Source: a virus. From it: a stretch of 64,000 nucleotides of DNA. This document shows positions 25,838 through 56,351 of the stretch, one piece after another (position 1 is the stretch's first letter; every line of letters starts with the position of its first letter). Both the position numbers and the translations under genes were made by a program. Under the pieces are notes generated by a model. It was not told the DNA's origin. It was given only the letters and a program-made list of their open reading frames with translations, and ran no database searches. The DNA is taken from positions 1 through 64,000 of the IMG/VR virus record IMGVR_UViG_3300030419_007010, one strand, 5' to 3'.

Positions 25838-25846
25838 AATAAATAG
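25838..25846 (-). promoter_or_regulatory. CTATTTATT motif upstream of the sheath gene
   Basis: The coding strand reads CTATTTATT in the 102-base gap before the sheath start. The same core occurs before the 473, 31577 and 55397 starts. The rest of this gap holds an A/T-rich stretch without a clear hairpin. Confidence 0.35.
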
Positions 25847-25880
25847 TGCTTTACAAGTCTAAAAGAAAAAATTATAGTAA

Positions 25881-28525: not shown

Positions 28526-28570
28526 TCATATGCACTCCTTTATATAACTTAAATAGTTTATAGAAATAGA

Positions 28571-28625: not shown

Positions 28626-30461
28626 CTAGCCAAGCAAGTCAGTAACAACAACTAGACCGTACATATCGGGTCTAACCATCTTCTTCGCGTAACGAGTCAT
28701 CACGCCCTTACGGGGTACGAAGTCCTCGGTACCGAAGATTGTCGGTGTGACCTGTAGTGGTACATATGGCGCGTATACATAGCCGCTCTCAAGGAAGCTT
28801 CCTCCCTTACGACCAACTAGTACAACGTTGCGTAGGAAGTAAGGATCTACGTATACATCCCACTTCTTGCTCAAGGAACCAACCTTGACAGCACCAACAG
28901 TTCCCTTGTCGTCATCAAGCGTAACGTTTGCACGGAATCCAGATGTGAACTCTAGAAGGTTCGCAATTTCAGGTGATACCACGATGAAATTAGCTCCGCC
29001 TCGGAGAGTCTTACGGTGGATTTGTGCTGACACGTCGTTGACTGTCTCAACAAGAGTCTCATACCACTCGGATACGTTACCAGTGAAGTCTGGACCAGCG
29101 GATCCGCCAGAAGTCAAATCTTTACCTGTTTGGCGATTGACAAACTTACCGGGTCGGCGCGACCAGTAAAGCACATCAGCAGTAGCTCCCTTAACGAGGT
29201 CATTGAGAATCTCACGGTCAATCTCAAGAGCAATTTGCTCAGAGAGAATGCTTGTAAGCTCTACCTCTGCATCCAAGTTGTGGTATGCGTTGAGGTCCTG
29301 ACCAAGCTCTGGGGTCCACTTTGCCTTGAGCTTCTTGGTGATTGCCGTTACAGCAATGCTGTCGACCTGGATGTCGATCTCTGGAATATCACCAGTTGTA
29401 TCACTAATGACACCATCAACAGTTGTAGCGGTCGACTCCAATAGCCACTCATTAGCACCCTTGACGGCACCGAGAGTATCCGAAGAAATGAAGTTATCAG
29501 CGGAAGTCCAGTTAAACGAGTGAGTATTACCAATAGTACCGTTCACATTACCTGCTGTGGTAGCGGTATCACCGTCTAGAGTAGATGGCGAAAGTGTAGC
29601 GGAAAGCTGCTGGATACCAGTGTCGTCAGCCGAATCAGCCTTGAAGAACAAGTAAATGTTGTCGCGATCTGGATTTTCTGGGTTGTCGAGATCATCGCTC
29701 TTTCTCGCGAAAGAAGTTAGTCGACGAATATGAGAACCAGAAATAGCATGTGCTGCTGAAGCAGTCAAAGCAATAGTTGTCAAGTTGTCAGTGTTGAGCT
29801 GACTAAAGACACTTGCAGAAACCTTAGTAACAACAACACCCGAACCAGAAAGATCAGGGTCGTGCTGACAAATAGAGTTGAACCGATCAAGCGTGAGGCC
29901 GGCCAATTCGCCGACGCCGGCAACAATACTAACACCTAGCGTACCGGAAGCAACTGTGGTCAAAACAACTCCGGAAGCTTCATCAGACGGGGAAGCATAA
30001 CCGTTACGTAGGTTATAGAAACCGCCACCATCGTCAGTAGCGAGGTCAACACCACCGGTCAACTGTGAACCGACAACGTTACCGCCATAGAGCGAATCAC
30101 CTGCAGAGTAAAGTCCGCGAGTGTCAGTAGCCTGGAAATCCAGGAAGAAGATGAGGCCAGAAGGCAAGCTCATCGGCTGCACAGATACTAGATCGTTAGC
30201 AACCAAGCCAGCGAATACGCGGCGGACGATGGGGAAAGCAACAGAAGCGAAACCTTCGACATCACCACCAGCCATTGTGCTAGCTTCCTTCAATAGCTGT
30301 GCGGCTTGGTTCTCAAGCAAGCGTGCCATTGTATTCTTTTGGTGATCGCCGCCGAGGCCCTCAAGAAGTCCAGTGCGATCCCATTTTTCTAGTAGGGCAG
30401 CACCTTCCTGCTGGAGGCTTCGATCAACGATACCTTCAGTTAATTTTTCTAAAACAGACAT
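28626..30461 (-). CDS. Major capsid protein (gp23-like)
   Basis: 611 residues. The HK97-fold T4-type capsid family is recognised from the N-terminal region FASVAFPIVRRVFAGLVAND and LVSVQPMSLPSGLIFFLDFQ, the mid-region KLKAKWTPELGQDLNAYHNL followed by EVELTSILSEQIALEIDREI, and the C-terminal FIVVSPEIANLLEF, then YVYAPYVPLQVTPTIFGTED and YAKKMVRPDMYGLVVV. Residues 1-59 are a helical delta-type propeptide; LLKEA (E59|A60) fits the (I/L)xE cleavage rule of T4 gp21, so the protease at 38.9 kb may cut there. Folding may be helped by the phage GroES-like protein. It follows the scaffold gene by 21 bases and is followed by a strong terminator. Confidence 0.92.
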   Translation of the reverse strand: MSVLEKLTEGIVDRSLQQEGAALLEKWDRTGLLEGLGGDHQKNTMARLLENQAAQLLKEASTMAGGDVEGFASVAFPIVRRVFAGLVANDLVSVQPMSLPSGLIFFLDFQATDTRGLYSAGDSLYGGNVVGSQLTGGVDLATDDGGGFYNLRNGYASPSDEASGVVLTTVASGTLGVSIVAGVGELAGLTLDRFNSICQHDPDLSGSGVVVTKVSASVFSQLNTDNLTTIALTASAAHAISGSHIRRLTSFARKSDDLDNPENPDRDNIYLFFKADSADDTGIQQLSATLSPSTLDGDTATTAGNVNGTIGNTHSFNWTSADNFISSDTLGAVKGANEWLLESTATTVDGVISDTTGDIPEIDIQVDSIAVTAITKKLKAKWTPELGQDLNAYHNLDAEVELTSILSEQIALEIDREILNDLVKGATADVLYWSRRPGKFVNRQTGKDLTSGGSAGPDFTGNVSEWYETLVETVNDVSAQIHRKTLRGGANFIVVSPEIANLLEFTSGFRANVTLDDDKGTVGAVKVGSLSKKWDVYVDPYFLRNVVLVGRKGGSFLESGYVYAPYVPLQVTPTIFGTEDFVPRKGVMTRYAKKMVRPDMYGLVVVTDLLG

Positions 30462-30482: not shown

Positions 30483-31577
30483 TTATTTAATACCTGCTAA
30501 CGCCCGCCACCTTTCGGAAGCCGGGTCGTCGTTTTTCTCTGCTTTGCGATCTGAAGCCGCTAACAGAATAGTAGAGGAAGTTTTATTTACCGCTTCACTC
30601 AGCGATTTTGGCTGCTTTTTAGAGGTGCTGCCCACTGTGTTTTGAAGTGTTTCGAAAATAGTTTTCGCTTCCTCGACACTTTTAGCATTAGACAAAGCTT
30701 CGGCAATTGTACTTTTTTGCCGCTCATTCAGGGAGGTGCTAGTTAACGCTTTATTAGTGTATAGTAACCTTGCATTTAAAATATTACTCTCTTCGACTTT
30801 ATCTTTAAGAGACTCAATTAATTGCACAAGTTTTTGTTCGTTTTGTTGGTGTTGTTTTATCTTACTTTTATTTTTTGTAAGAATTTTATTTAATTTAGTA
30901 TTAGACTCGTTAAGATTTTCAGCTTCTTCTTCGAGTTTCTCAACAGCCTTTCTTAATTCTTCATTATGTTTCTTTACTTCAGTGTCTTGTTCGCGGGCTA
31001 ATAATTCTTCAGCAGCTTCTTCTAATTGTGAAGCCGGAGTTCCAGCCCAGCCAGATTTTTCTGGCTTGATATCTACTTTTAGTGTTTCTGTCAATTCTCC
31101 AACGATCTCTTCTAATAAATTAGAATCTATCTGGATGTCTTCTCCTAATCTTTCGCCTGTGTTAACAACGTCTGCCGCAAATTGTTCGCGTGATTCGAGG
31201 CCAGCTTCTGTTCCGATTACATCATCAACATGTTGTGTTAAAGCGTCGAGATCTAATTCAACCCATGCGTTAGGGCCACCTTCTTCTGCTTCATCTGGGC
31301 AACCACAAAGCTCTTCGCCATCGTGGGCTGCCAACGGCATATCGTCAATTACTGGATCAGTTTCGACTTCTTCTCCGGGAAGGCCGGCATCGTCGCCACC
31401 GAGAAGAGCATCTACTTCGGCGTCTAGGCCAGCTTCTTCTGGTTGTTCTAATAACGTTTCGACGGCTTCTTTGATTTGATCAGAGTATTTGTCAATTATC
31501 GCGGCTTCTGCATTTTTTAAAGCCACTTCTCTTAGTGCTTCAGCGTCAATTATCGCTTGTTCTAACATTGAAGACAT
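30483..31577 (-). CDS. Prohead scaffold / core protein (gp22-like)
   Basis: 364 residues, strongly acidic in the first 170 and a long coiled coil at about 185-275 (EEAAEELLAREQDTEVKKHN onward). The C-terminal LLYTNKALTSTSLNERQKST and IAEALSNAKSVEEAKTIFET is the conserved part of T4 gp22-type scaffolds. It forms the prohead core around which capsid protein assembles, and is then degraded by the prohead protease; several (I/L)xE sites are present (for example LLEE, LIE). Immediately upstream of the capsid gene, as in T4. AGGAG precedes the ATG at 31577. Confidence 0.82.
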   Translation of the reverse strand: MSSMLEQAIIDAEALREVALKNAEAAIIDKYSDQIKEAVETLLEQPEEAGLDAEVDALLGGDDAGLPGEEVETDPVIDDMPLAAHDGEELCGCPDEAEEGGPNAWVELDLDALTQHVDDVIGTEAGLESREQFAADVVNTGERLGEDIQIDSNLLEEIVGELTETLKVDIKPEKSGWAGTPASQLEEAAEELLAREQDTEVKKHNEELRKAVEKLEEEAENLNESNTKLNKILTKNKSKIKQHQQNEQKLVQLIESLKDKVEESNILNARLLYTNKALTSTSLNERQKSTIAEALSNAKSVEEAKTIFETLQNTVGSTSKKQPKSLSEAVNKTSSTILLAASDRKAEKNDDPASERWRALAGIK

Positions 31578-31610: not shown

Positions 31611-31619
31611 AATAAATAG
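31611..31619 (-). promoter_or_regulatory. CTATTTATT motif upstream of the scaffold gene
   Basis: CTATTTATT occurs on the coding strand in the 83-base gap before the scaffold start at 31577. This is a logical place for a strong late promoter serving scaffold and capsid, but no -35 box is visible. Confidence 0.4.
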
Positions 31620-31660
31620 TATATTCTTAATGTAAAAGACTTTTTTCATACTGTGCTGTC

Positions 31661-37146: not shown

Positions 37147-37383
37147 TTAAGTATACTTAATTTGTAGTTTTTTTCTTCTTTGAGCTTCAGCTTTTCTAAC
37201 ATTTTGAAGCTTTTTTAATTTTGCTCTTCGTCTCTTCTTTGAAGGCTTCTCGAAAAACATTTTTTCTTTGTATCTTTCAATGACTTTTTCTTTTTTAACT
37301 TTTTTAATAAATTTTTTAATTAATCTGCTGGTGTTTCCGCCAACTTCTTTTAAAGAAACCTCAACATGTACTGGTTTAGCCAT
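37147..37383 (-). CDS. rpsU: Phage-encoded ribosomal protein bS21
   Basis: 78 residues, the family length. The bS21 pattern is clear: an N-terminal strand (VHVEVSLKEVGG), a first helix rich in Lys (RLIKKFIKKVKKEKVIERYK), the hallmark F-F-E-K-P-S-x-x-R-R-R-A-K (43-55, compare F/Y-E-K-P-T-x-x-R-x-R-K in cellular bS21), and a basic C-terminal helix. bS21 binds the 30S platform near the anti-Shine-Dalgarno region and aids initiation. Phage copies are known in aquatic phages and may bias host ribosomes towards phage mRNA. It is unusual in lying within the head operon, between a leader-type protein and virion genes. Confidence 0.85.
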   Translation of the reverse strand: MAKPVHVEVSLKEVGGNTSRLIKKFIKKVKKEKVIERYKEKMFFEKPSKKRRRAKLKKLQNVRKAEAQRRKKLQIKYT

Positions 37384-37825: not shown

Positions 37826-38914
37826 TCATGGAGCGGGGAAGGCCCCTGCTCGAATCCTGTCGCTCACAGCCGCAGCATTCTCCTCGCCGGAAGTTTTTAA
37901 AACGTTATCTTTTTTTGCTATAGCATTAAGCACATCTTGCAGCTTTAGAGGATCAAGAAGATCACGCGTGTGTAAACTATGTAGAGCGTTTCCTACAGCC
38001 TTTGCAAGATCTGCAGAACGCTGGGGGCTGTCGTCGGCGCTATATTTTTCAAATGCTTTTAATAGGAGAGCCGTTACAGCTTTGCGCTCACCTTTTGTCC
38101 AGCCGCCATGGCCGACTGGCTCGGAACCTAGCGCTCCCTTGAGGCGATCAAGAATTCCCTCTTGGTATATCTTTTCTTCGGAAAAATGTCTCGTCTGCCA
38201 ATCATCTCGAAGGTCCTCCACTTTTGTCTTCAGCCAGTCGATGAGTTCGTGATTCCCCCCAACACCAGTTTTTAAAAGATCGCCGGCCGTTTTGATCGCC
38301 GCGGCGGGACTCTCTTTCTCTAAGTCATTGATAGTTTTGGTAACCTCTTCAAATTGTTTGTTATAGGCCTGAACTCTGGCTTTAATTTTAGCGTCGTACT
38401 CGGGGTTTGGTGGATAATCTTTCCAACTCTCTAATACGGCTGATGTCTCTTCTTTAATGATTCTTGCCAATTCTTCTTTGGTGATATTCATTTTGGATTC
38501 TTGCTGGGTGGATTCGTTATAACGGGTCCAGATGGGCCTCGGGCGGTCTTGGCGACGTTGGTGGAGGTAGGGGCTCGGTCGGTCTCCGGAGAGGCGCCAT
38601 GTGTTTCTGATGCTTTCGGCGGCCTTTCGCGCCTTTTCGGCGAAGTCGCCTTTGATGCGCATGGCGTTGATGCAATCCATATGCTTTTTTAGAAGGGCTG
38701 ACTCTAGCGGACTTCCGGGTGGTAAATCCAGGAGGCCGGCGTCCTTGAACTCGTTGGCCAATTGCTCAAAGCACTTCTCCCGGGCCTGGATGGACATGGT
38801 GTTATATTTCGGGTGAGGGTGCTCCTTCTTCGCGCGTAGCCGCCACCGCGGTGGATTTGAATTATTTATCTCTTCTCTAATGATTTGTTCCAGTTGTTCT
38901 CTTGTAATTCCCAT
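37826..38914 (-). CDS. Two-leader fusion protein, candidate internal head protein
   Basis: 362 residues. It starts MGITREQLEQIIREEI and a second leader (MNITKEELARIIKEET) begins at residue 142 (ATG at 38491), so the protein is two leader-bearing units fused in frame. The first unit (about 16-141) is Arg/Pro-rich and its DNA is clearly GC-richer (by hand count about 58% over 38521-38820, against roughly 35-45% around it), suggesting a recently acquired insert. The second unit is mostly helical (LEKESPAAAIKTAGDLLKTG; WTKGERKAVTALLLKAFEKY). No enzymatic family recognised. A shorter 221-aa product from the inner ATG is possible, though no good ribosome site precedes it. It directly precedes the start of the core/bS21 genes and follows the protease gene. 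Confidence 0.6.
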   Translation of the reverse strand: MGITREQLEQIIREEINNSNPPRWRLRAKKEHPHPKYNTMSIQAREKCFEQLANEFKDAGLLDLPPGSPLESALLKKHMDCINAMRIKGDFAEKARKAAESIRNTWRLSGDRPSPYLHQRRQDRPRPIWTRYNESTQQESKMNITKEELARIIKEETSAVLESWKDYPPNPEYDAKIKARVQAYNKQFEEVTKTINDLEKESPAAAIKTAGDLLKTGVGGNHELIDWLKTKVEDLRDDWQTRHFSEEKIYQEGILDRLKGALGSEPVGHGGWTKGERKAVTALLLKAFEKYSADDSPQRSADLAKAVGNALHSLHTRDLLDPLKLQDVLNAIAKKDNVLKTSGEENAAAVSDRIRAGAFPAP

Positions 38915-38916
38915 TG

Positions 38917-39549
38917 TTAATCTCCCAAGATATCATCAAGAACATTGTTGATTCTTTGAGTTTTTGTAGTATTTTGCTGGTTTTCTGCCAGTCCGATAGA
39001 AACTCTACTTCTTGACCCGCCTTCCGGATTCAAGTAAGCCCCTGGCGTTGAAGGTTCCGAAACAATATCAAAGCAAATAAGCTGAAAATCATCTTCAACC
39101 ATTGTTATGCCGTTTGATTCTTTTACTGAACCTAATCCTCTCGAAGAAATTCCTAGTTTTACTCCCGATTGAAGCAAAGCTTTTAATACTTTGCCCGAGG
39201 GGGTATCCAAAACTTCAATTTTGCCCATTACATTATCGCCATCCCACCAAGTTTTCGTAACAAGATGAGAAGCGTTCTTCAAGTTGATAACAGAATCATC
39301 AGGATGATCTAGTTCTCCCAACGATCTTCTTTCTTGAACCGCTCTTTGGTAATTTTCTACTTCTCTCTGCAAAGTTTCTTTACGATAGATTCGACCATTA
39401 CCATTTTTTGTTCCGGCGCGTTGAATCACACCAACAAGATAAACCGATCCGCCATCAACACGACGTTTTTCGTCTTCGGTTAATACAGTTAGATCACAAA
39501 TGCCATCCGGACATAATTGGAAATATTCTTGTAAAAGTGTTTTTGACAT
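38917..39549 (-). CDS. Prohead protease (gp21-like)
   Basis: 210 residues from the ATG at 39549; an in-frame TTG at 39570 lies in a hairpin and is less likely. The fold of herpesvirus-type prohead proteases is seen from VYLVGVIQRAGTKNGNGRIY, catalytic His in GELDHP (H82), VMGKIEVLDTPSGKVLKALL, and the catalytic Ser in LGISSRG (S135 or S136). The C-terminus (about 165-210) is charged and probably removed. It cleaves scaffold, capsid and internal proteins after (I/L)xE in T4; matching sites occur in the capsid protein and in the small leader proteins of this phage. The own N-terminus (SKTLLQEYFQL) has an L-Q-E triplet. Confidence 0.88.
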   Translation of the reverse strand: MSKTLLQEYFQLCPDGICDLTVLTEDEKRRVDGGSVYLVGVIQRAGTKNGNGRIYRKETLQREVENYQRAVQERRSLGELDHPDDSVINLKNASHLVTKTWWDGDNVMGKIEVLDTPSGKVLKALLQSGVKLGISSRGLGSVKESNGITMVEDDFQLICFDIVSEPSTPGAYLNPEGGSRSRVSIGLAENQQNTTKTQRINNVLDDILGD

Positions 39550-40514: not shown

Positions 40515-41335
40515 TAGCTTTGTATCTCTTTTACTAAACTTTGAATTTTCATAATCTTTTGAATCATACTCGAAGTTATTTCTGTGTTTCTAAACTCTTC
40601 TATTGTATTAATAACTTTCTGTGTTTTTTCAAAAATCAAAGGATTGCTTTTAACCGCCTCGGAGTGAAGCGATTCTGTCATTTGGGTTTTTAATCTTCCA
40701 ACTTCTTCATTTAAGAAGACTTTGAACTCAACACCATTGTCTGAAAAAGAAGTAATATACTTATTCAGCAATTCTTTTTGTTCTTCTTGCAGGTTCTTGG
40801 AATAAATTGAATTAAAGTTTTTTGTAAATGTATTAAAAACCAACTTGTCGGTTGTCACAATTTTTTCTTTTAGCATTTCCTGTGGCTCGCTCAACTGGCC
40901 AATCACTTTTTCTTCTAAAAGAACTCGTTTTTTAGGTCCATCTTCTTCATTGAAAAGTTGATAGATCGTGGCGATATTTTTATATTGCGGAACAAAGTTA
41001 GAAAATATATTTCTTGAGAGAGATTTGTTTATTTGATTAATAAGTTTGCTTTGAGCTTCAAAAACCTCTTCTCTATCTAAACTTTTATATTCTCTTCTAG
41101 CTTCGTATACTAGCTTTTCTGCTATTCTGCTTGACAAGTTTCTACTTTCTAATAAAGATTTATAAATATCTAATTCTTTTTTGAGAATGCTGTCTTTTTT
41201 AAAGTTTTCTTTTATTAGTGAAATAATCTTGTTTTTTGTTTGTGAATTATTCTTGACAATTGATTTTGTTAGTTCTTTTACAAGTGCTTCAAATAAAAAC
41301 GCTGTATTTCTTTTCTTATTATGTCTAAACTTCAT
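40514..41335 (-). CDS. Conserved protein next to portal, possible prohead core protein
   Basis: 273 residues, highly helical and charged throughout (Lys/Glu-rich, with long heptad-like stretches at about 15-120 and 215-270). The N-terminus MKFRHNKKRNTAFLFEALVK with ELTKSIV is conserved in my memory among unannotated genes that follow the portal in marine T4-like phages. A prohead core or portal-associated role is likely by context. Its start overlaps the portal gene by 11 bases. Confidence 0.5.
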   Translation of the reverse strand: MKFRHNKKRNTAFLFEALVKELTKSIVKNNSQTKNKIISLIKENFKKDSILKKELDIYKSLLESRNLSSRIAEKLVYEARREYKSLDREEVFEAQSKLINQINKSLSRNIFSNFVPQYKNIATIYQLFNEEDGPKKRVLLEEKVIGQLSEPQEMLKEKIVTTDKLVFNTFTKNFNSIYSKNLQEEQKELLNKYITSFSDNGVEFKVFLNEEVGRLKTQMTESLHSEAVKSNPLIFEKTQKVINTIEEFRNTEITSSMIQKIMKIQSLVKEIQS

Positions 41336-43316
41336 TCTTTTTCGTCTCCAACAATTCCATTTCGTTGATTAACTGCTTTATATCATGATCAACTTTTAAT
41401 AAATTATCTTCATCTCTTTTATAATTAGACTCTAAATTCTCTGAAATACCTTTTGCTAGTCTTCGCATGTCGTCAGCGCCTTTCCAGATATTTCTTGTGG
41501 TATTTTTTGTTAATTCATCTGCCCACACACCCTTATAATGTCTTTGCCTTGCGGAGCCGGCATAATTGGGATTTTTTTCGGGCATATACCACTTTTTAGA
41601 TTTCGGAGTAGTTGTTTGTACGCTCGTGCCTTTCTTTCTAACTAGCTTTATAGGCATCTCCTTTCCATCATCTCTTTTTGCCGGGGCAGCGAGCAGGGCA
41701 CCGGGATCGGCCGGCTCTTCAGCGCCAGCTTCGGGCACTGCCAATTCCTCATCACCAGCCGCGATGGCTTCTTCTTCGGGCGGCAGGCCTCCACCAAGAT
41801 CGTCCATCGGTTCATCGAGACCCTCCAGATCACCAAGTCCTCCGGCTCCAGGTTCGGCGCCTGCTGTGACTTCTTCAACTGTTCTTTCTAGAGCAGCCTC
41901 AAACTTTCTGTCATAGAACATCTCTCTCTGACATCTAGTAAACTCTTCTTCGGACATGCTGAATAGGTGATCTGAAATCCATCGCTTGCTGAAATATCCT
42001 TCGGTGGCTGCGCTAGCAACATCAAATTTAGTTCTCCAGTGTTCTAGTTCCTGCATCTCTGCTAGTTTAGATGGATTGTTCAAAGCAATCTTGAACGAAA
42101 CCAAGTCGGCGCCTCTGTAGCCAAGAGTAAACAAATGGACAATGCCAATTTTCTCTAGTTCTGAAATTATAACTCTTTGAAGCCTCTGAATGGTTCTCGC
42201 AAATCGAATATCTTTTTGAGCTAGCGTTGTTTTATCTTCTTCTGCGCCGCCTTCCGTCTGCGCCAAATAAGATGCCGGTATCTTTAGTGCCGAGAATAGC
42301 TTATCTCGCAAATATTTGATATCATCAATATCACCAGTATACGTGCCGCCCGGTAGAGACTCAACTTTAGAAGAAGTATCCCCGCGAACTGGAATAAAGT
42401 AATCTTCTTCAACGCTCATCGGGTTATAACGCAAATCGACGCGTCCGGTATCTTGATCGATGACCTGATTTCTCTTCATTTGCGTCATGACCTTCTGCAT
42501 ATACTGTTCAACATCGGCAGGAGGAATATTGCCTACATCAATATAGAAAACTCTTCTCTCTGGCGAGCGGACAATACGATAGGCCATTACGGCGTCTTCC
42601 ATAAGAGTTAGCTGGCGCCAAATTCTTCTAGCCGGCTCCAAAATAGAGGTTCCATAAGGAGAATACTTATCGTTGCCTAAAATTCTAAAGTGTGCAATCT
42701 GCCAGTTCTCAAATGTAATGCCACCGGTGTTCCATTGATACTGAATATAGTTTGGATTAGTCTTGTCTTCACCCTCAAGTCTTTCTATTTCTTGCGGAGG
42801 CAGGCCAACTGCATATTGGATGCCTTCTTGTTCGTCAATATCTAAATAAAGAAAGAAGTCGCCGTATTTGCACATTGTGCGAGCCCAGCCGAATAAATTA
42901 AATTCAATATTTAATACATTCTTATATAAGTTATCCAAAACTGTTTTTATTTCTTCGTTATGACAACTAATTTTCATCAACGGCTGCAAATCGCTAGATG
43001 TAGTCATCTCGTCTGCATAAATATCAAGCGCTGAAGCGATTTCTGGCGTATATTCCATCTGATCAAAGTCAACATACCGATCGGCACGGTTTTGATTCGC
43101 CATATAATTGGCTTGAATTGAATCATAAGGATTATACTCTGACTTTTTAAACTGTTGACCGGAAGATGAGCGAATATTATACTTTGATATTTCTCTACGA
43201 TGAGGTTGTCGAGGAAGCTGCCTACGATAGTTTACAATCGGGCCTGACAAAAGTCGCGTGAGTTTTCGGAATAATATATTTTTTGAATTTCTAGGGTTAT
43301 TTTTATTTTCAGCCAT
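41325..43316 (-). CDS. Portal protein (gp20-like)
   Basis: 663 residues. The T4 gp20 family is recognised from the wing/clip region YVDFDQMEYTPEIASALDIY with ADEMTTSSDLQP, LFGWARTMCKYGDFFLYLDI, the stem region LEPARRIWRQLTLMEDAVMA with YRIVRSPERRVFYIDVGNIP, and YTGDIDDIKYLRDKLFSALK followed by PASYLAQTEGG. The C-terminal ~170 residues begin with an acidic Gly/Pro/Glu-rich stretch (about 470-540) that is longer than in T4 and ends in a helical tail. It forms the dodecameric DNA entry ring and the terminase docking site, and nucleates the prohead. Terminase lies two bases upstream. Confidence 0.92.
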   Translation of the reverse strand: MAENKNNPRNSKNILFRKLTRLLSGPIVNYRRQLPRQPHRREISKYNIRSSSGQQFKKSEYNPYDSIQANYMANQNRADRYVDFDQMEYTPEIASALDIYADEMTTSSDLQPLMKISCHNEEIKTVLDNLYKNVLNIEFNLFGWARTMCKYGDFFLYLDIDEQEGIQYAVGLPPQEIERLEGEDKTNPNYIQYQWNTGGITFENWQIAHFRILGNDKYSPYGTSILEPARRIWRQLTLMEDAVMAYRIVRSPERRVFYIDVGNIPPADVEQYMQKVMTQMKRNQVIDQDTGRVDLRYNPMSVEEDYFIPVRGDTSSKVESLPGGTYTGDIDDIKYLRDKLFSALKIPASYLAQTEGGAEEDKTTLAQKDIRFARTIQRLQRVIISELEKIGIVHLFTLGYRGADLVSFKIALNNPSKLAEMQELEHWRTKFDVASAATEGYFSKRWISDHLFSMSEEEFTRCQREMFYDRKFEAALERTVEEVTAGAEPGAGGLGDLEGLDEPMDDLGGGLPPEEEAIAAGDEELAVPEAGAEEPADPGALLAAPAKRDDGKEMPIKLVRKKGTSVQTTTPKSKKWYMPEKNPNYAGSARQRHYKGVWADELTKNTTRNIWKGADDMRRLAKGISENLESNYKRDEDNLLKVDHDIKQLINEMELLETKKNEV

Positions 43317-50796: not shown

Positions 50797-53700
50797 TTAG
50801 AAACTAACATAAGCATATCCGTCCTTTTTCTCAATAATAAGTTGAGAATCTACACAATCTTTCAACGAGTCCAAGTGCGAAATCAATACGACTGTTTTAA
50901 ATTGTGTCTTAACCATGTCCAACATCCTGACAAAGCCTTCCATATTATCTTCGTCAAGCGCAGTACCGGGCTCGTCGAGAATAAATATATCAGACTTTGG
51001 AAGAGTCGAGACATTTAACAGCGCCAAGCGGATGGCCATTGCAGCAATAGTTTTTTCTGCTCCGGAACCCATTTCGATCGGACGTGGATCGTGGCGCGGG
51101 TGTTTAATATGAATATCCAGCTTCTTACCATCTTCTTCAAAGAAAATTTCAAACTCTACAATATTGGTAAGAATTTTAGATATTTCTTCGTTAATGATTG
51201 GAAGCTTTTTCTTAATAATATCATATGATATGCCGTTAGTATGCATGCATCTCAAGTATAAATCAATAGAAGAATATTCATTTTGAAGAGTTATATACTC
51301 TTGTTGTTGTTGCTCTAAATTTTTAACACTCTGTTCCAAAGAGCCGTGAACTTTATAAAGCTCCAAAGTCTCTTCATTGCATTTCTCATATCTATCTTTA
51401 AAATCGACATGTTTATTAAAAGTGTGCTCTTTTTGTTTAATAAGCTCTTCAAGATTTTCTATAGTTTCTTTATTGTCTTCATACTCTCGTTTTTTATCAT
51501 TAAGATCTTTTAAAGCGCTCTGAGTCTTTAAGAGTTTGGTCTTGTTCTTTTCTATCAAAAGTTTGGTGTTGTTGACAGAACGTTGAACTTCGTTTCTCTT
51601 TTCTAAAAGTTTATCATACTTTTCCAGATACTCGTTAATTTTATCTGGCTCCAATGACGAAACTTCTTGTTCCACTTCTTTCTTGAAAAAGCTTAATTCT
51701 TCGATTGAAACCTGTACTTTCCCAATTTCGTTTTTGGATTCATATGCGTCTTTGATAAATTTACAACTAGGAAAACTATCGCCACACGGCACTTCGTCGA
51801 GGAGTTCAATCTTCTCACCATGGTGGCTAAACTTCATTTCCAAGACTTTTAGCTCTTGTTCAAAGTTCTCAATTTTCTTTCTATGTTGCTGAATTAACAA
51901 AGCTTTTTCTTCATATGAAGCATAATCAAAGCTGCTAATGAACTCTTCCATTCTCACGAGAAGGTCCCTGTTGTCGCTCAATCGAGAACTGAATTCAGTG
52001 CTTTGTTCTTTGACAGTCTCAAGAAGCTCTTCTTGTTCATCAATTCTTCGATTCACAAAAGCAATATCAATAATCTCCGCAGGAATTGAATCAATCACAG
52101 AATTTAAGTCATTGATCTTGCCAGCCAGTATTTCAATATCTTTGCTTAAAAGCTCGCATTCTTTCTTTTTTCTCTCCGCAACAATTTCATTTAAGACCAA
52201 TTCTTCGTTAGCTAGTTTAATTTCTTCTTTAAAATCACGACCTTCTAGGCGTTTTAAAGCCGCGCGAATTTCAGAAGCTTCTTCTTTGGCTAACTTAAAC
52301 TTCTTTTCAAACAACTCTAAATCTAGAAATTTAGCTAGAATTTCCTTTCGCCGGGTTGAACCTTCATTAATAAATGAAAGCGAACCTAACTGGCTAGCCA
52401 TTGAAGTCATAAGGAAATCTTCGATGGTTCCAAACACCTTCTTGATATTCTTGTCGGTGTCCATTCGGCTCAAGCCGTTCAATGAATCGACTTCTCCAGT
52501 TGTGTTGTTGCGCTTAACAAAATTAACATCAGTTTTTGCTTCAAGAGTAACTTCACCTTTAAGCTTCTTTGTATATTTTTCAGAAGTTCTCTCAATCAAA
52601 TAAGTGTTATGGCCAACATCAATTTCTATTTCGCCAACACATGATTGTTTATTTTGATTAATAAAGTTAAGATTCTTTCTTACATTCTTCGAAGTTGAGT
52701 TGTATAAAGTGTAAAGAATACTATCAACAATGCTGGACTTTCCTGAATAGTTCTTGCCAAACACGCCCAGAATTCCATGAGAGTTTCCAAAGTCGATTTC
52801 ATTATCTGAACCATAATTGAAAAGATTATCCCACTTCACGCTTCGCAAACGCCAGTTTACGTTTCTTGCAACTTCTTCTTCTTGTTCAGCTAAAGTGTTA
52901 TATCTTTTGTTGAGATCAAAAATAATATCAAGAAGTTCTTCCGGAGTATCATACTCTTCAAGATATCCAGAAATAAGCTTTTCTTGGGTTTTCAGATTTC
53001 TTAAATCTTCTTGGACCAAGTTTTTTGCTAATTCAGATACATTGGCGTTGTCTTCTGCTCTGTTAAGGTAGGTGATAGCTTCTGGCTTAAAACGGTGTTT
53101 AGCTACGTCTATTGCCTTCCTCACGGCATCCAAGGATAAATTACTAGTGGATACCAGCCTTAACCTCGCGCCTTCCGGCAAGGAGGTGTTTTTGGGCATC
53201 CTGCCCTTCTTGGTTAGCTCGATAGTAATAAAGGGCTTTGGATTAGAAATTGGGATATGCTTGACAGTAAACTCTTCTTTGTCTTTGATATCCCAAACCA
53301 AGAAGCCTTTATCGTTTGTCTCGCCGTGATTCTGCTGAATAGTAGAACCTGGATATCTGACTCGACCTTCGGGATCTAATGCCTGATTTGTCTTGTGGAT
53401 ATCACCAAGGAAGGCAAAATCGAAATCCTTAAAGATTGTAATGTTGTCATCAGTGTGTTCTAGTGTCCAACCAATGTCGGTTTTTGAACTAGAGACAGAC
53501 CCGTGATACAAAGCGATATTCACGGCATCTTTATTTGATGGTTTAACCCAATTCTCTCTATCAAAGACGGAAAGCACGTTAAAATAGAAGCCGTCTTTAA
53601 GCTTCATCTCTTGCGAATCTTTTAGGAGATATAGATCGGGGTGATCAAGCGAACGAACAATTGGTGTCAAAGCATCGAGACGGCCACTGTTTTTCAAGTT

Positions 53701-54022: not shown

Positions 54023-54424
54023 TTAATAACTTGTTGGTCCCGAATTTCTAGTCAATATTGGCTTAGATTCCTCTTTCTCTTGTGCCCAACTTGGAGTTGG
54101 AAAGTTTGGCACGGCTTCTTTACTTTTATCTAGTTTGTTTCCGTAGCCTTGTTCTTCGAGCGCAACTAATGCATCTCGAAGGTTTTGTGCTGCGTCAACA
54201 ACTTGTTCTGGTAATATGTCTAGTGGAAGCTCTTCTAAAATTCTAGAAGCTACTTTAACGTTATTATATACTGCGTCTGGATCTTCTTCTGAAGTGTCCA
54301 TAAGATCTGACGGGCCTAGGCCTTGGGGTTCTGGTGTGACGCCGGTGGCAATAGAGAACGGGCCGATAGTCTCTTTCAGTTCTTCTTTAATGATTTGTTT
54401 TAATCTTGTTTTAGTTATCTTCAT
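54023..54424 (-). CDS. Leader protein 4: small protein with MKITKTRLKQIIKEEL N-terminus
   Basis: 133 residues from the ATG at 54424, chosen because GAGGAAGAG precedes it and it aligns with the other leaders; a longer reading frame opens at 54499 but overlaps the preceding gene. After the 16-residue leader the protein is acidic, Pro-rich and partly helical (VASRILEELPLDILPEQVVD). No known domain. The leader's I-K-E triplet fits the (I/L)xE cleavage rule of T4-type prohead proteases, so it may be an internal head protein (inference). It overlaps the preceding leader gene by 14 bases. Confidence 0.6.
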   Translation of the reverse strand: MKITKTRLKQIIKEELKETIGPFSIATGVTPEPQGLGPSDLMDTSEEDPDAVYNNVKVASRILEELPLDILPEQVVDAAQNLRDALVALEEQGYGNKLDKSKEAVPNFPTPSWAQEKEESKPILTRNSGPTSY

Positions 54425-54737
54425 TGATCTCTTCCTCAAGCGGCGCGTGAGCCGGCGTGGATCCGCGGGGGCGTTCGGCGCCGGCGAGAGGTTCTCCAAT
54501 CGATTCTGAGTCTATAAAATAAGAAAGTGTCTCTAGCATATCCCGCACAATTTTCTGAACCTCTTTTTCTGGCATATGAGGATGATTTTGGCGAAGCTTC
54601 ACGGTCAGCGCAGTACCGAGTTCGTGTCTAGTGGCTTCTGTCAAAACTAATTCAGTTTCTTTTTTAGAAGCAGAAGCTTCTACTAGATCTAGTTCTTCTT
54701 TAATAATTTCTTTTAGTCTTGATTTTGTTATTTTCAT
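54411..54737 (-). CDS. Leader protein 3: small protein with MKITKSRLKEIIKEEL N-terminus
   Basis: 108 residues. The leader is followed by a mixed helical body (VLTEATRHELGTALTVKLRQ; EKEVQKIVRDMLETLSYFID) and a short Pro/Gly/acidic tail whose DNA is locally GC-rich (54445-54490). No family recognised. Same I-K-E triplet as the sibling genes. Its start overlaps the stop of leader protein 2 by one base. Presence of the shared leader on an otherwise unrelated body is the main observation. Confidence 0.6.
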   Translation of the reverse strand: MKITKSRLKEIIKEELDLVEASASKKETELVLTEATRHELGTALTVKLRQNHPHMPEKEVQKIVRDMLETLSYFIDSESIGEPLAGAERPRGSTPAHAPLEEEINEDN

Positions 54738-55066
54738 TATCTGGGAGCCCTATATGTATCTTCACCAGTGCGGGCGAACTCAGCATCACTCTTGGCGAAG
54801 GAACTAAGCCCATGTTTTCGTTTAAACTCTATAGCAATTTCATCAACCATCGTCTTAAGTCTTCCACCAGTAATAGATTTTCGAATTGTTTCTAAAGCCT
54901 CTTCTGCTGAAAGTTTTACTTGATATAACTCGTCGCGACAGGCTTCTACTGATGCTTGTGCGCGCTTCTTGCCAAATAAATCAATCTCGTTGATTTTCTT
55001 TTCAGCCAATACATTAGCTACTTCTTCTTTAATGATCTGTTCTAGTTGTGATTTTGTTATGTTCAT
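54737..55066 (-). CDS. Leader protein 2: small protein with MNITKSQLEQIIKEEV N-terminus
   Basis: 109 residues. The leader is identical in protein and DNA to that of leader protein 1 because both lie in a perfect 64-bp repeat. The body (KKRAQASVEACRDELYQVKL; RLKTMVDEIAIEFKRKHGLS) is helical and basic and bears no similarity to the neighbour's body. No known domain. Part of a four-gene run of leader proteins between primase and the Mre11-Rad50 gene. Confidence 0.62.
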   Translation of the reverse strand: MNITKSQLEQIIKEEVANVLAEKKINEIDLFGKKRAQASVEACRDELYQVKLSAEEALETIRKSITGGRLKTMVDEIAIEFKRKHGLSSFAKSDAEFARTGEDTYRAPR

Positions 55067-55082
55067 GATATTATTTGCTTAA
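55019..55082 (-). repeat. Perfect 64-bp direct repeat, copy A (leader of protein 2)
   Basis: Identical to 55350-55413. It covers the upstream spacer, start codon and the first 16 codons (the leader). The flanking bases differ at once on both sides. Confidence 0.95.
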
Positions 55083-55397
55083 CTTATCCGTTATTATATC
55101 TACTAGATCTGCCCATTCAGCCGCCGGCGAGGACTTGCTCGGGAGAAGGATCTTCGCGCCTAGGGTATAAAGCAGGTTTTGTGCAAACTCTTGAGTTAAA
55201 TATTCCGGGAGTCCACCGCCCAAACTTGCGCCATCGCCGGTCGCGATGGAATAATAATCATTAAGAACTTCAGGATTTATTTTAGCTTTTTGCAAAATTT
55301 CTTCCGGGGAGGGCGGAGAACCAGGGGCCTCTCTTAAAATATTCTCTATTACTTCTTCTTTAATGATCTGTTCTAGTTGTGATTTTGTTATGTTCAT
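55071..55397 (-). CDS. Leader protein 1: small protein with MNITKSQLEQIIKEEV N-terminus
   Basis: 108 residues. After the leader come a Pro/Ser segment (REAPGSPPSPEEILQKAK), then a helical body (LNDYYSIATGDGASLGGGLP; YLTQEFAQNLLYTLGAKILL) and a C-terminal helix (EWADLVDIITDKLSK). No family recognised. The start and leader lie in the second copy of the 64-bp repeat. No clear Shine-Dalgarno site precedes the ATG in either copy of the repeat, unlike most genes here. It follows the primase gene by 12 bases. Confidence 0.62.
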   Translation of the reverse strand: MNITKSQLEQIIKEEVIENILREAPGSPPSPEEILQKAKINPEVLNDYYSIATGDGASLGGGLPEYLTQEFAQNLLYTLGAKILLPSKSSPAAEWADLVDIITDKLSK

Positions 55398-55413
55398 GAT
55401 ATTATTTGCTTAA
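55350..55413 (-). repeat. Perfect 64-bp direct repeat, copy B (leader of protein 1)
   Basis: Identical to 55019-55082, offset 331 bases. On its right side it carries the stop codon of the primase gene (TAA), whereas in copy A the same bases are read in a different frame at the end of leader protein 1. Confidence 0.95.
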
Positions 55414-56351
55414 GTAGAAAGCACACTCCTTAATAAATAGTTAGAACTATTCATAAGTATAGCATTTTTTTTGCGCTCTTCAAACTCGCTTTTGCTCATC
55501 TCGCCAACATCTGAAAATGGGAAGATATTTATCTTATAAACTTCAATCCCGTATTCCATCAAATTGTTGATCAATCTCAACGCTTTTTTCTCAACATCAG
55601 GATCCAAAGCGATATATATTGTTGTCTCGTTTGCTGCAAGTTCTTGAAATAATTTAGAGTTTTCTTTTAACGTCGAACCCAAAATAGGAATTGCGCTCGG
55701 TCCAGCAACAATGGCATCATAAACGCCTTCAACCAAAGTGACGCTTTCTTTCCAATTAACATATAGATGATTAAATATTATATCCTTCTCAACCGGCGGG
55801 TTCTTATACTTCATCCAATCGTCAACATATGTTCGAGAAACAAAGTAATTGCAATATCCTGTTAAACCAAAAGAAGGAACGATTATTCTATTTGCGTATT
55901 CTCCTTCTGAACAATATCCTATTTTCCATCGGACAATATCCTTTTCTGTTATGCCACGAGACTTAAGATATTTTCTTGCGGCCAGCGAGCCAATAGAGTT
56001 GTTTCCGTTGGCTAATGATATAAATTCTTTTGGCAAGCCAACTTGTTCTTCTAATGTTTTTGTTTCTTCTGTTCCGAAGATCGATTCTTCAAAATCGTTA
56101 ACATCAACAGAGCCATCCAATTCTTTCCAAGATTCAATCTGTTTGAAGTTGCCGAAGCGCCGGATGAGTCTTGAGATGTTTCTTCCACTATAATCACAGA
56201 TCCAACATTTGAAAGCATTCTTATCAACATTAACTGATAGCTTGTTTTTATGGTGCGTGCATTCTGGACAGCGAAAAAGAAACTCTTCGCCAGTTCTATA
56301 AAACCGGCCGAGGATATCAACTAGGATTCTTCTTTTTTCTGCTTCTGCCAA
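55410..56351 (-). CDS. DNA primase (T4 gp61 / DnaG type)
   Basis: 313 residues. A zinc ribbon at the N-terminus has C-x2-C (C28, C31) and C-x2-C (C49, C52) in RCPECTHHKNKLSVNVDKNA followed by FKCWICDYSGR. A TOPRIM-type core follows, with IGYCSEGEYANRIIVPSFGL, VTLVEGVYDAIVAG (acidic Glu of the TOPRIM motif) and IYIALDPDVEKKALRLINNL (DxD). It makes RNA primers for the lagging strand with the gp41-like helicase. The start is TTG at 56351, inside the end of the RuvC-like gene (31-base overlap) with AGG about 10 bases upstream; no good ATG is available near the N-terminus. Confidence 0.88.
   Translation of the reverse strand: MAEAEKRRILVDILGRFYRTGEEFLFRCPECTHHKNKLSVNVDKNAFKCWICDYSGRNISRLIRRFGNFKQIESWKELDGSVDVNDFEESIFGTEETKTLEEQVGLPKEFISLANGNNSIGSLAARKYLKSRGITEKDIVRWKIGYCSEGEYANRIIVPSFGLTGYCNYFVSRTYVDDWMKYKNPPVEKDIIFNHLYVNWKESVTLVEGVYDAIVAGPSAIPILGSTLKENSKLFQELAANETTIYIALDPDVEKKALRLINNLMEYGIEVYKINIFPFSDVGEMSKSEFEERKKNAILMNSSNYLLRSVLST

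What the first reader, a model, noticed from the sequence alone, without database searches (positions are those of the whole stretch)
54023..55397. A modular leader (MxITKxxLxxIIKEE) on unrelated small proteins: candidate capsid-targeting signal for internal head proteins
Four consecutive genes (starts 54424, 54737, 55066, 55397) begin with near-identical 16-residue amphipathic helices but have unrelated bodies. The same leader occurs twice in the gene at 37826-38914 (residues 1 and 142), and looser versions start the genes at 473 and 37815. T4 delivers internal proteins (IPI-III, Alt) into the head through a short N-terminal signal that gp21 cuts after (I/L)xE; these leaders carry I-K-E, and this phage encodes a gp21-like protease at 38917-39549. 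The inference is that the bodies are packaged and injected effectors, e.g. early host-takeover or anti-defence proteins.
Basis: partly seen in the sequence, partly recalled or inferred. Interest (0 to 1): 0.75.

Follow-up and report, generated by a model that had tools for sequence, protein, structure and literature searches.

The report
Phage leader peptides for capsid cargo
This uncultured virus of bacteria puts the same short, apparently cleavable peptide on the front of many otherwise unrelated proteins, very probably an address label that loads them into the virus head, which would let researchers list head-packaged proteins in thousands of uncultured viruses from sequence alone.

Summary
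Four consecutive genes (54023-55397, minus strand) and the gene at 37826-38914 (twice) carry the leader MxITKxxLxxIIKEE on unrelated bodies; the loose versions at 473 and 37815 are not leaders. Both leaders are widespread in viral contigs; leader 1 is essentially absent from 257 Gb of cellular genomes. 316 leader proteins fall into 194 body clusters. Large leader-bearing contigs nearly always carry the gp21-type (S77) protease. Both leaders end in the gp21 site (I/L)xE, which persists when its register shifts. Leader genes often flank the protease gene. One body family carries different (I/L)xE leaders in other phage lineages. A blind test that recovers T4's known capsid-targeting sequence recovers these leaders. 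Copies also occur at C-termini, so a start-of-gene DNA element does not explain them. Best explanation: capsid-targeting propeptides removed by the phage's own prohead protease (0.8). Cleavage, virion location and injection are inferred; I found no virion proteomics. T4 precedent makes this a new variant of a known kind; the scale, two labels per genome and enzymatic cargo appear new.

The parts
55071..55397 (-). leader-1 gene 1 of the array, MNITKSQLEQIIKE|EV..., 108 aa
54737..55066 (-). leader-1 gene 2, MNITKSQLEQIIKE|EV..., 109 aa
54411..54737 (-). leader-1 gene 3, MKITKSRLKEIIKE|EL..., 108 aa
54023..54424 (-). leader-1 gene 4, MKITKTRLKQIIKE|EL..., 133 aa (ATG at 54424, not the upstream TTG)
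55350..55413 (-). 64-nt exact repeat, copy A (16 nt spacer + 48 nt leader)
55019..55082 (-). 64-nt exact repeat, copy B
55434..55441 (-). ACTATTTA, putative late promoter element in front of the leader array
   Evidence: most enriched upstream 8-mer in this genome and five relatives; T4 control gives its known late promoter TATAAATA
37826..38914 (-). two-leader gene directly downstream of the protease gene; leaders at residues 1 (38914) and 142 (38491); possible polyprotein
38917..39549 (-). gp21-type prohead protease (Peptidase_S77); its own N-terminus carries a VLTE site
28626..30461 (-). major capsid protein (gp23-like by position and N-terminal similarity to T4 gp23); predicted cleavage LLKE|AST after residue 59
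   Evidence: conserved as LL(K/R)E|(A/S/T) in six relatives
30483..31577 (-). scaffold (gp22-like by position); ACTATTTA at 31613-31620 in front
   Evidence: identification by gene order and conservation, inferred
   Evidence: profile score 5.4
41325..43316 (-). gp20-type portal
   Evidence: E 2.8e-83

Best explanation
The leaders are capsid-targeting propeptides. During head assembly the amphipathic N-terminal helix (leader 1 MxITKxxLxxIIKEE, leader 2 MKLLLENWRKYLNE) docks its protein onto the growing prohead core. Once the shell is complete, the S77 (gp21-type) protease cuts after the (I/L)xE that ends the leader and frees the body inside the head, to be packaged with the DNA and ejected at the next infection. 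Shown here: the modular leader, its two kinds, the conserved (I/L)xE, the link to S77 phages, the location beside the protease, and leader exchange between phage lineages. Inferred: docking, cleavage, packaging and injection, by analogy with T4 IPI-III and Alt.
For: 1) Modularity: 316 leader proteins from viral contigs form 194 body clusters, 148 of them singletons; outside the leader the alignments have almost no consensus. 2) Site: scans that left the end of the leader free show leader 1 with [ILVM]xE at 12-14 in 106/115 and leader 2 in 132/173; of the 41 leader-2 exceptions 23 carry [IL]xE shifted within residues 10-19, against about 11% in body windows (p 6e-12); 61/115 leader-1 proteins have a second [IL]xE at 16-25, against 3-7% in body windows. 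3) The predicted capsid-protein site of the same phages is LL(K/R)E|(A/S/T), at the T4 gp23 position. 4) S77 in 27/32 leader contigs of 100 kb or more against 2/10 controls (p 4e-4), and 19/19 against 1/4 at 140 kb or more; three S77-negative leader contigs (one of them of 100 kb or more) simply end between portal and protease. 5) In the window and in about seven of 19 related neighbourhoods a leader gene lies within two genes of the protease. 6) Natural leader swap: one body family (invariant HxT, S..R, ExE) carries MKLLMENWRKFLKE in uncultured phages, MKIDSLYESLLEE in Alishewanella phage Slickus01, MIKLKSLLQE in a Microcystis phage and MKKFNEFANELAE in a Vibrio phage. 7) Blind search for repeated N-termini returns T4's known capsid-targeting sequence, an 11-gene leader in Slickus01 and leaders 1 and 2 in window-like genomes, but no (I/L)xE leader in four S77-negative genomes. 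8) T4 rules: 10-19 aa propeptides, cut after L/I-X-E (PMC9026906).
Against: I found no virion proteomics for any phage carrying leader 1 or 2. Neither leader resembles T4's MKTYQEFIAEA in sequence. The Glu at position 6 of leader 2 is nearly as strict as the one at 14, so Glu conservation alone does not prove a cleavage site. One T4-portal contig (G006) has a leader-like start and no S77. C-terminal copies, some ending at the E, show that part of the signal works without cleavage of a downstream body. A random S77-positive T4-like genome (G024) gave no (I/L)xE leader array. The putative late promoter precedes leader genes only about as often as other genes (11/79 against 87/1006, p 0.15).
Confidence: 0.8

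Rival explanations
1. The leader is an uncleaved docking helix that sends proteins to some other phage structure (replication complex, membrane, tail, phage nucleus); the (I/L)xE is part of the helix.
For: Helical, amphipathic; cargo includes DNA- and nucleotide-handling enzymes; C-terminal copies without a downstream body.
Against: (I/L)xE persists in shifted registers; leader genes lie beside the prohead protease; tied to T4-like head modules; the blind test that finds these leaders also finds T4's proven capsid-targeting sequence.
Confidence: 0.12
2. The repeat is a DNA- or RNA-level element at gene starts (translation enhancer or recombination cassette) and the peptide itself does nothing.
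For: A 64-nt exact DNA repeat spans spacer and leader in two neighbouring genes.
Against: The peptide is conserved on many different upstream and downstream sequences across phages, and copies lie at C-termini without a start codon, e.g. L383 ...ESKITKEDVKQIIREEIKNFKR, L055, L449.
Confidence: 0.03
3. The leader-bearing genes are degraded scaffold or core-protein duplicates whose shared start is ancestry, with no cargo function: they shape the prohead core and are digested.
For: Location beside the protease; T4 core proteins gp22, gp67 and gp68 are digested (PMC9958956); many leader-1 bodies are short, charged and unmatched in Pfam.
Against: Leader-2 bodies include intact enzyme families (NUDIX, GNAT, amidase, M23, S-AdoMet lyase, kinases), and bodies are too diverse to be one duplicate family.
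Confidence: 0.05

Closest known systems
T4 internal proteins IPI-III and their capsid targeting sequence
   Same: Short shared N-terminal leader on unrelated bodies, ends in (I/L)xE, S77 protease in the genome; recovered by the same blind test.
   Different: Leader sequences unrelated; two kinds per genome; up to 24-25 leader genes in one genome against 3 in T4; enzyme cargo; C-terminal and internal copies.
T4 Alt (injected ADP-ribosyltransferase cut by gp21 at both ends)
   Same: Enzyme cargo; leader copies at both ends in some proteins.
   Different: No Alt homologue shown; the HxT/ExE body family looks ADP-ribosyltransferase-like by motif only, and the structure test failed.
Giant-phage ejection proteins cleaved by prohead protease (phiKZ, SPN3US)
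   Same: Propeptides removed after a short motif ending in Glu; redundant sites in propeptides (PMC9026906).
   Different: Different motif; PMC9026906, in the parts read, describes no short leader shared by many unrelated cargo proteins there.
P1 DarA/DarB/Hdf head-packaged anti-restriction proteins
   Same: Proteins packaged in the head that act in the next host.
   Different: No short shared leader array comparable to this is known to me; literature lead only, not tested.

Membership tests
T4-type capsid targeting sequence / internal head proteins | 10-19 aa N-terminal segment shared by proteins with unrelated bodies | tested here: met
T4-type capsid targeting sequence / internal head proteins | Segment ends in L/I-X-E | tested here: met
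T4-type capsid targeting sequence / internal head proteins | gp21-type (S77) protease in the same genome | tested here: met
T4-type capsid targeting sequence / internal head proteins | Sequence resemblance to the T4 CTS (MKTYQEFIAEA) | tested here: not met
   Leaders 1 and 2 show no visible similarity to it beyond the (I/L)xE end; so it works like a CTS and is not claimed to descend from T4's
T4-type capsid targeting sequence / internal head proteins | Leader removed in the prohead; body present in mature virion | not testable with these tools
   needs virion mass spectrometry
T4-type capsid targeting sequence / internal head proteins | Leader alone packages a foreign protein | not testable with these tools
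   needs fusion experiment
Peptidase_S77 (gp21) | Profile match over curated cut-off | tested here: met
   PF03420, 110.1 bits, cut-off 27
ADP-ribosyltransferase fold for the HxT/ExE cargo family | Structural match to solved ARTs | tested here: inconclusive
   AlphaFold mean pLDDT 52; no Foldseek hit below E 0.4; no relevant profile match among PDB sequences

The most novel reading that the evidence does not exclude
Leaders 1 and 2 are two separate address labels in the same phage, each docking to a different prohead component (leader 1 somewhat resembling the start of the conserved 140-aa protein that follows the protease; leader 2 to a different one), so that two cargo sets are loaded at different places or in different amounts; the same labels are also used at C-termini and between fused cargo domains, with the protease cutting a polyprotein inside the head.
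Probability: 0.25. Interest if true: 0.8.

Novelty: new variant of a known kind. Interest (0 to 1): 0.66.

Why it matters
T4's capsid-targeting sequence has been known mainly from three small proteins. If these leaders do the same job, injected proteins can be read straight from sequence in a large group of uncultured T4-like phages: candidate head-packaged enzymes (S-AdoMet lyase, NUDIX, GNAT, kinases, wall hydrolases and hundreds of orphans) become a ready list for anti-defence and host-takeover screens. A general blind test (repeated N-termini ending in (I/L)xE) extends this to other phage lineages, each with its own leader.

Tried and rejected
My first leader pattern lacked one N and found nothing. 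tblastn with the short leader is too weak in 2.3 Gb. The search for related loci with three window proteins found no relatives: the bodies are orphans. The idea that leader 2 copies the capsid-protein N-terminus (LLEKWDRTGLLE) was not supported by profile score. 'MKLTKERLKALIxQEITNSLGFYGGE' hits were set aside as look-alikes (recalled as a podovirus portal; not tested) and excluded. A portal in the leader-2 set (L448) is a chance internal methionine. The ART-like reading of one cargo family could not be confirmed structurally. The late-promoter link is suggestive only: leader genes are not preceded by ACTATTTA significantly more often than other genes. No paper in the library contains the leader strings I tried, apart from unrelated chance matches; literature searches for marine internal head proteins gave nothing on them. 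The Flavobacterium phage immuto head region has no such leaders.

Full report
What was checked. The four genes at 54023-55397 and the gene at 37826-38914 carry the leader exactly as described, with an in-frame second copy in the latter at 38491. Two of the neighbouring genes share a 64-nt exact repeat made of 16 nt of spacer and the 48-nt leader, after which the sequences diverge at once. The two 'looser' examples fail a profile test: 37815 belongs to a conserved 140-aa family that follows the protease in most relatives, and 473 scores like background.

Where it is. The window is bases 1-64000 of a 161,727-bp virus record with a gp20-type portal and a gp21-type S77 protease. Reading the rest of the record shows more leader-1 genes at 140838-141531 and 151027, and a second leader, MKNLFENWRxYLNE, on four consecutive genes at 137204-139006 and on 155187, with looser forms on the 810-aa and 651-aa genes at 144214 and 135765. 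The two leaders form runs: leader 1 in runs of four and three, leader 2 in a run of four. In relatives the two kinds mix within one run (G010 2-2-1-2-2-2, G014 2-2-2-2-1, G038 2-1-2-2-2-2-2), and G049 has 24 leader genes (25 in the looser clustering).

How common and how modular. Complete leader proteins of at least 60 aa number 108 (leader 1) and 208 (leader 2); with the leader removed they fall into 194 clusters, 148 of them singletons. In aligned representatives only the leader survives in the consensus. Leader-2 cargo includes NUDIX, polynucleotide kinase, AAA_33/zeta-toxin-like, GNAT, M23 peptidase, amidase, LysM, HD, DNA methylase and S-adenosylmethionine lyase domains, one or two proteins each. 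Leader-1 cargo has no Pfam match. One portal match is a chance internal start. In 84,980 cellular genomes a stringent leader-1 pattern hits only 7 stretches on 5 contigs, all in metagenome-assembled genomes; two of those four MAGs also hold an S77 protease, and I take these for binned phage contigs; two do not. Leader 2 was not searched in cellular genomes.

The protease site. T4's gp21 cuts after L/I-X-E, and T4's capsid-targeting sequences are 10-19-residue propeptides in which residues 4 and 7 target and residues 8 and 10 govern cutting (PMC9026906). In scans that left the end of the leader free, leader 1 has [ILVM]xE at residues 12-14 in 106 of 115 cases, with the middle residue variable (K, R, Q, L and others), and a second [IL]xE a few residues later in 61 of 115, against 3-7% in body windows. 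Leader 2 has it at 12-14 in 132 of 173; of the 41 others, 23 have [IL]xE shifted elsewhere in residues 10-19, against about 11% in body windows (p 6e-12). Conservation of leader 2 drops abruptly after the E. The capsid protein of the window phage has LLKE|AST at the position where T4 gp23 is cut (the T4 position is from my own knowledge), and six relatives have LL(K/R)E|(A/S/T). The proteases themselves mostly carry an LTE near the N-terminus. A caution: Glu 6 of leader 2 is nearly as strict, so the register shift, not Glu conservation, is the real argument.

Link to the T4-like head module. Of leader contigs of at least 100 kb, 27 of 32 have S77 against 2 of 10 random contigs (p 4e-4); at 140 kb or more it is 19 of 19 against 1 of 4. 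Three S77-negative leader contigs with a T4 portal (G018, G060, G064) end before the protease position; only G006 is a true exception, and its leader-like start is weak. In the window and in about seven of 19 neighbourhoods a leader gene of either kind lies within two genes of the protease, on both sides in L396. Since T4-likeness and S77 go together, this ties the leaders to T4-like heads, not to the protease alone.

Leader exchange. One cargo family (HxT, S..R and ExE invariant) was followed into cultured phages. Its N-terminus is MKLLMENWRKFLKE in the uncultured phages, MKIDSLYESLLEE in Alishewanella phage Slickus01 (T4-like, S77 present), MIKLKSLLQE in Microcystis phage Mel-JY01, MKKFNEFANELAE in Vibrio phage K566, and absent in Dickeya phage JA29. 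The leader changes with the phage lineage, the body stays, and the leader, where present, ends in a hydrophobic-x-E motif. In Slickus01 the same leader begins 11 genes, 10 of which have the motif.

Blind control. A search for 13-residue N-termini shared by genes with unrelated bodies, run without knowledge of any leader, returns T4's known ipII/ipIII sequence (plus gene 61.1, MKTFKEFIKED), the Slickus01 leader, and leaders 1 and/or 2 in all six window-like genomes. Four S77-negative genomes give no (I/L)xE leader. One random S77-positive genome (G024) gives none either.

Not just the start of a gene. Copies of both leaders also occur inside proteins that already begin with one (about nine, including the window gene) and at C-termini (eight, six of them in proteins with an N-terminal leader). 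Some internal copies may be independent starts. The C-terminal copies argue against a start-codon DNA element, and suggest that the peptide acts as a docking signal beyond being a cutting site. T4 Alt is cut at both ends (PMC9026906).

Expression. The 8-mer most enriched upstream of genes is ACTATTTA in this genome and five relatives (p 2e-8 to 1e-16); the same search in T4 gives its known late promoter TATAAATA. ACTATTTA precedes the scaffold and tail-sheath genes here and in several relatives, the baseplate-like gene at 82035, and also the first gene of the 54-55 kb leader array (55434-55441) and the 135765 gene; a one-base variant, ACTACTTA, precedes 144214. Late timing would fit head loading, but leader genes are not preceded by the element significantly more often than other genes (p 0.15), so this is consistent, not decisive.

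Conclusion. The simplest account is a capsid-targeting propeptide system working as in T4, with lineage-specific leader sequences, two per genome here, and a far larger cargo. Steps shown: leader, modularity, site, genome context, exchange between lineages. Steps inferred: docking on the prohead core, cleavage, packaging, injection, effector function.

Noticed in passing
whole record and relatives; in window at 55434-55441, 31613-31620, 28550-28557, 25840-25847: ACTATTTA is the most enriched 8-mer upstream of genes in six related uncultured T4-like phages, in front of scaffold and tail-sheath genes: a likely clade-specific late promoter replacing T4's TATAAATA.
   Followed up: partly
G030 (IMGVR_UViG_3300035529_000070), loci L516-L524: A phage without S77 or T4 portal has eight genes with unrelated bodies starting MI[SHNR][DE]EF[IMW]K[TS]A or close to it: a different leader type without (I/L)xE.
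   Followed up: no
T4 genome, gene 61.1 (L508:18966-19130): T4 gene 61.1 begins MKTFKEFIKED, clustering with the ipII/ipIII capsid-targeting sequence; it may be an unrecognised internal head protein.
   Followed up: no
T4 genome (L509) ORFs at 53358, 58534, 70360: Three T4 ORFs share the upstream-extended start CGTIQxS; probably a repeated non-coding stretch read as protein.
   Followed up: no
window 37147-37383: A small protein just after the conserved 140-aa family weakly matches phage ribosomal protein S21 (PHROG 21469, E 0.0004).
   Followed up: no
Alishewanella phage Slickus01, 86664-93266: Nine adjacent genes share the leader MKIDxLYESLLEE, several of them paralogues of one HxT/ExE family: an internal-protein array in a cultured phage, good for virion proteomics.
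   Followed up: partly
L174:9854-13258, L449, L164, L383, L055, L051, L382; record 141782-144214: Leader copies at the C-terminus, sometimes ending exactly at the (I/L)xE; their function is not explained by N-terminal cleavage alone.
   Followed up: partly
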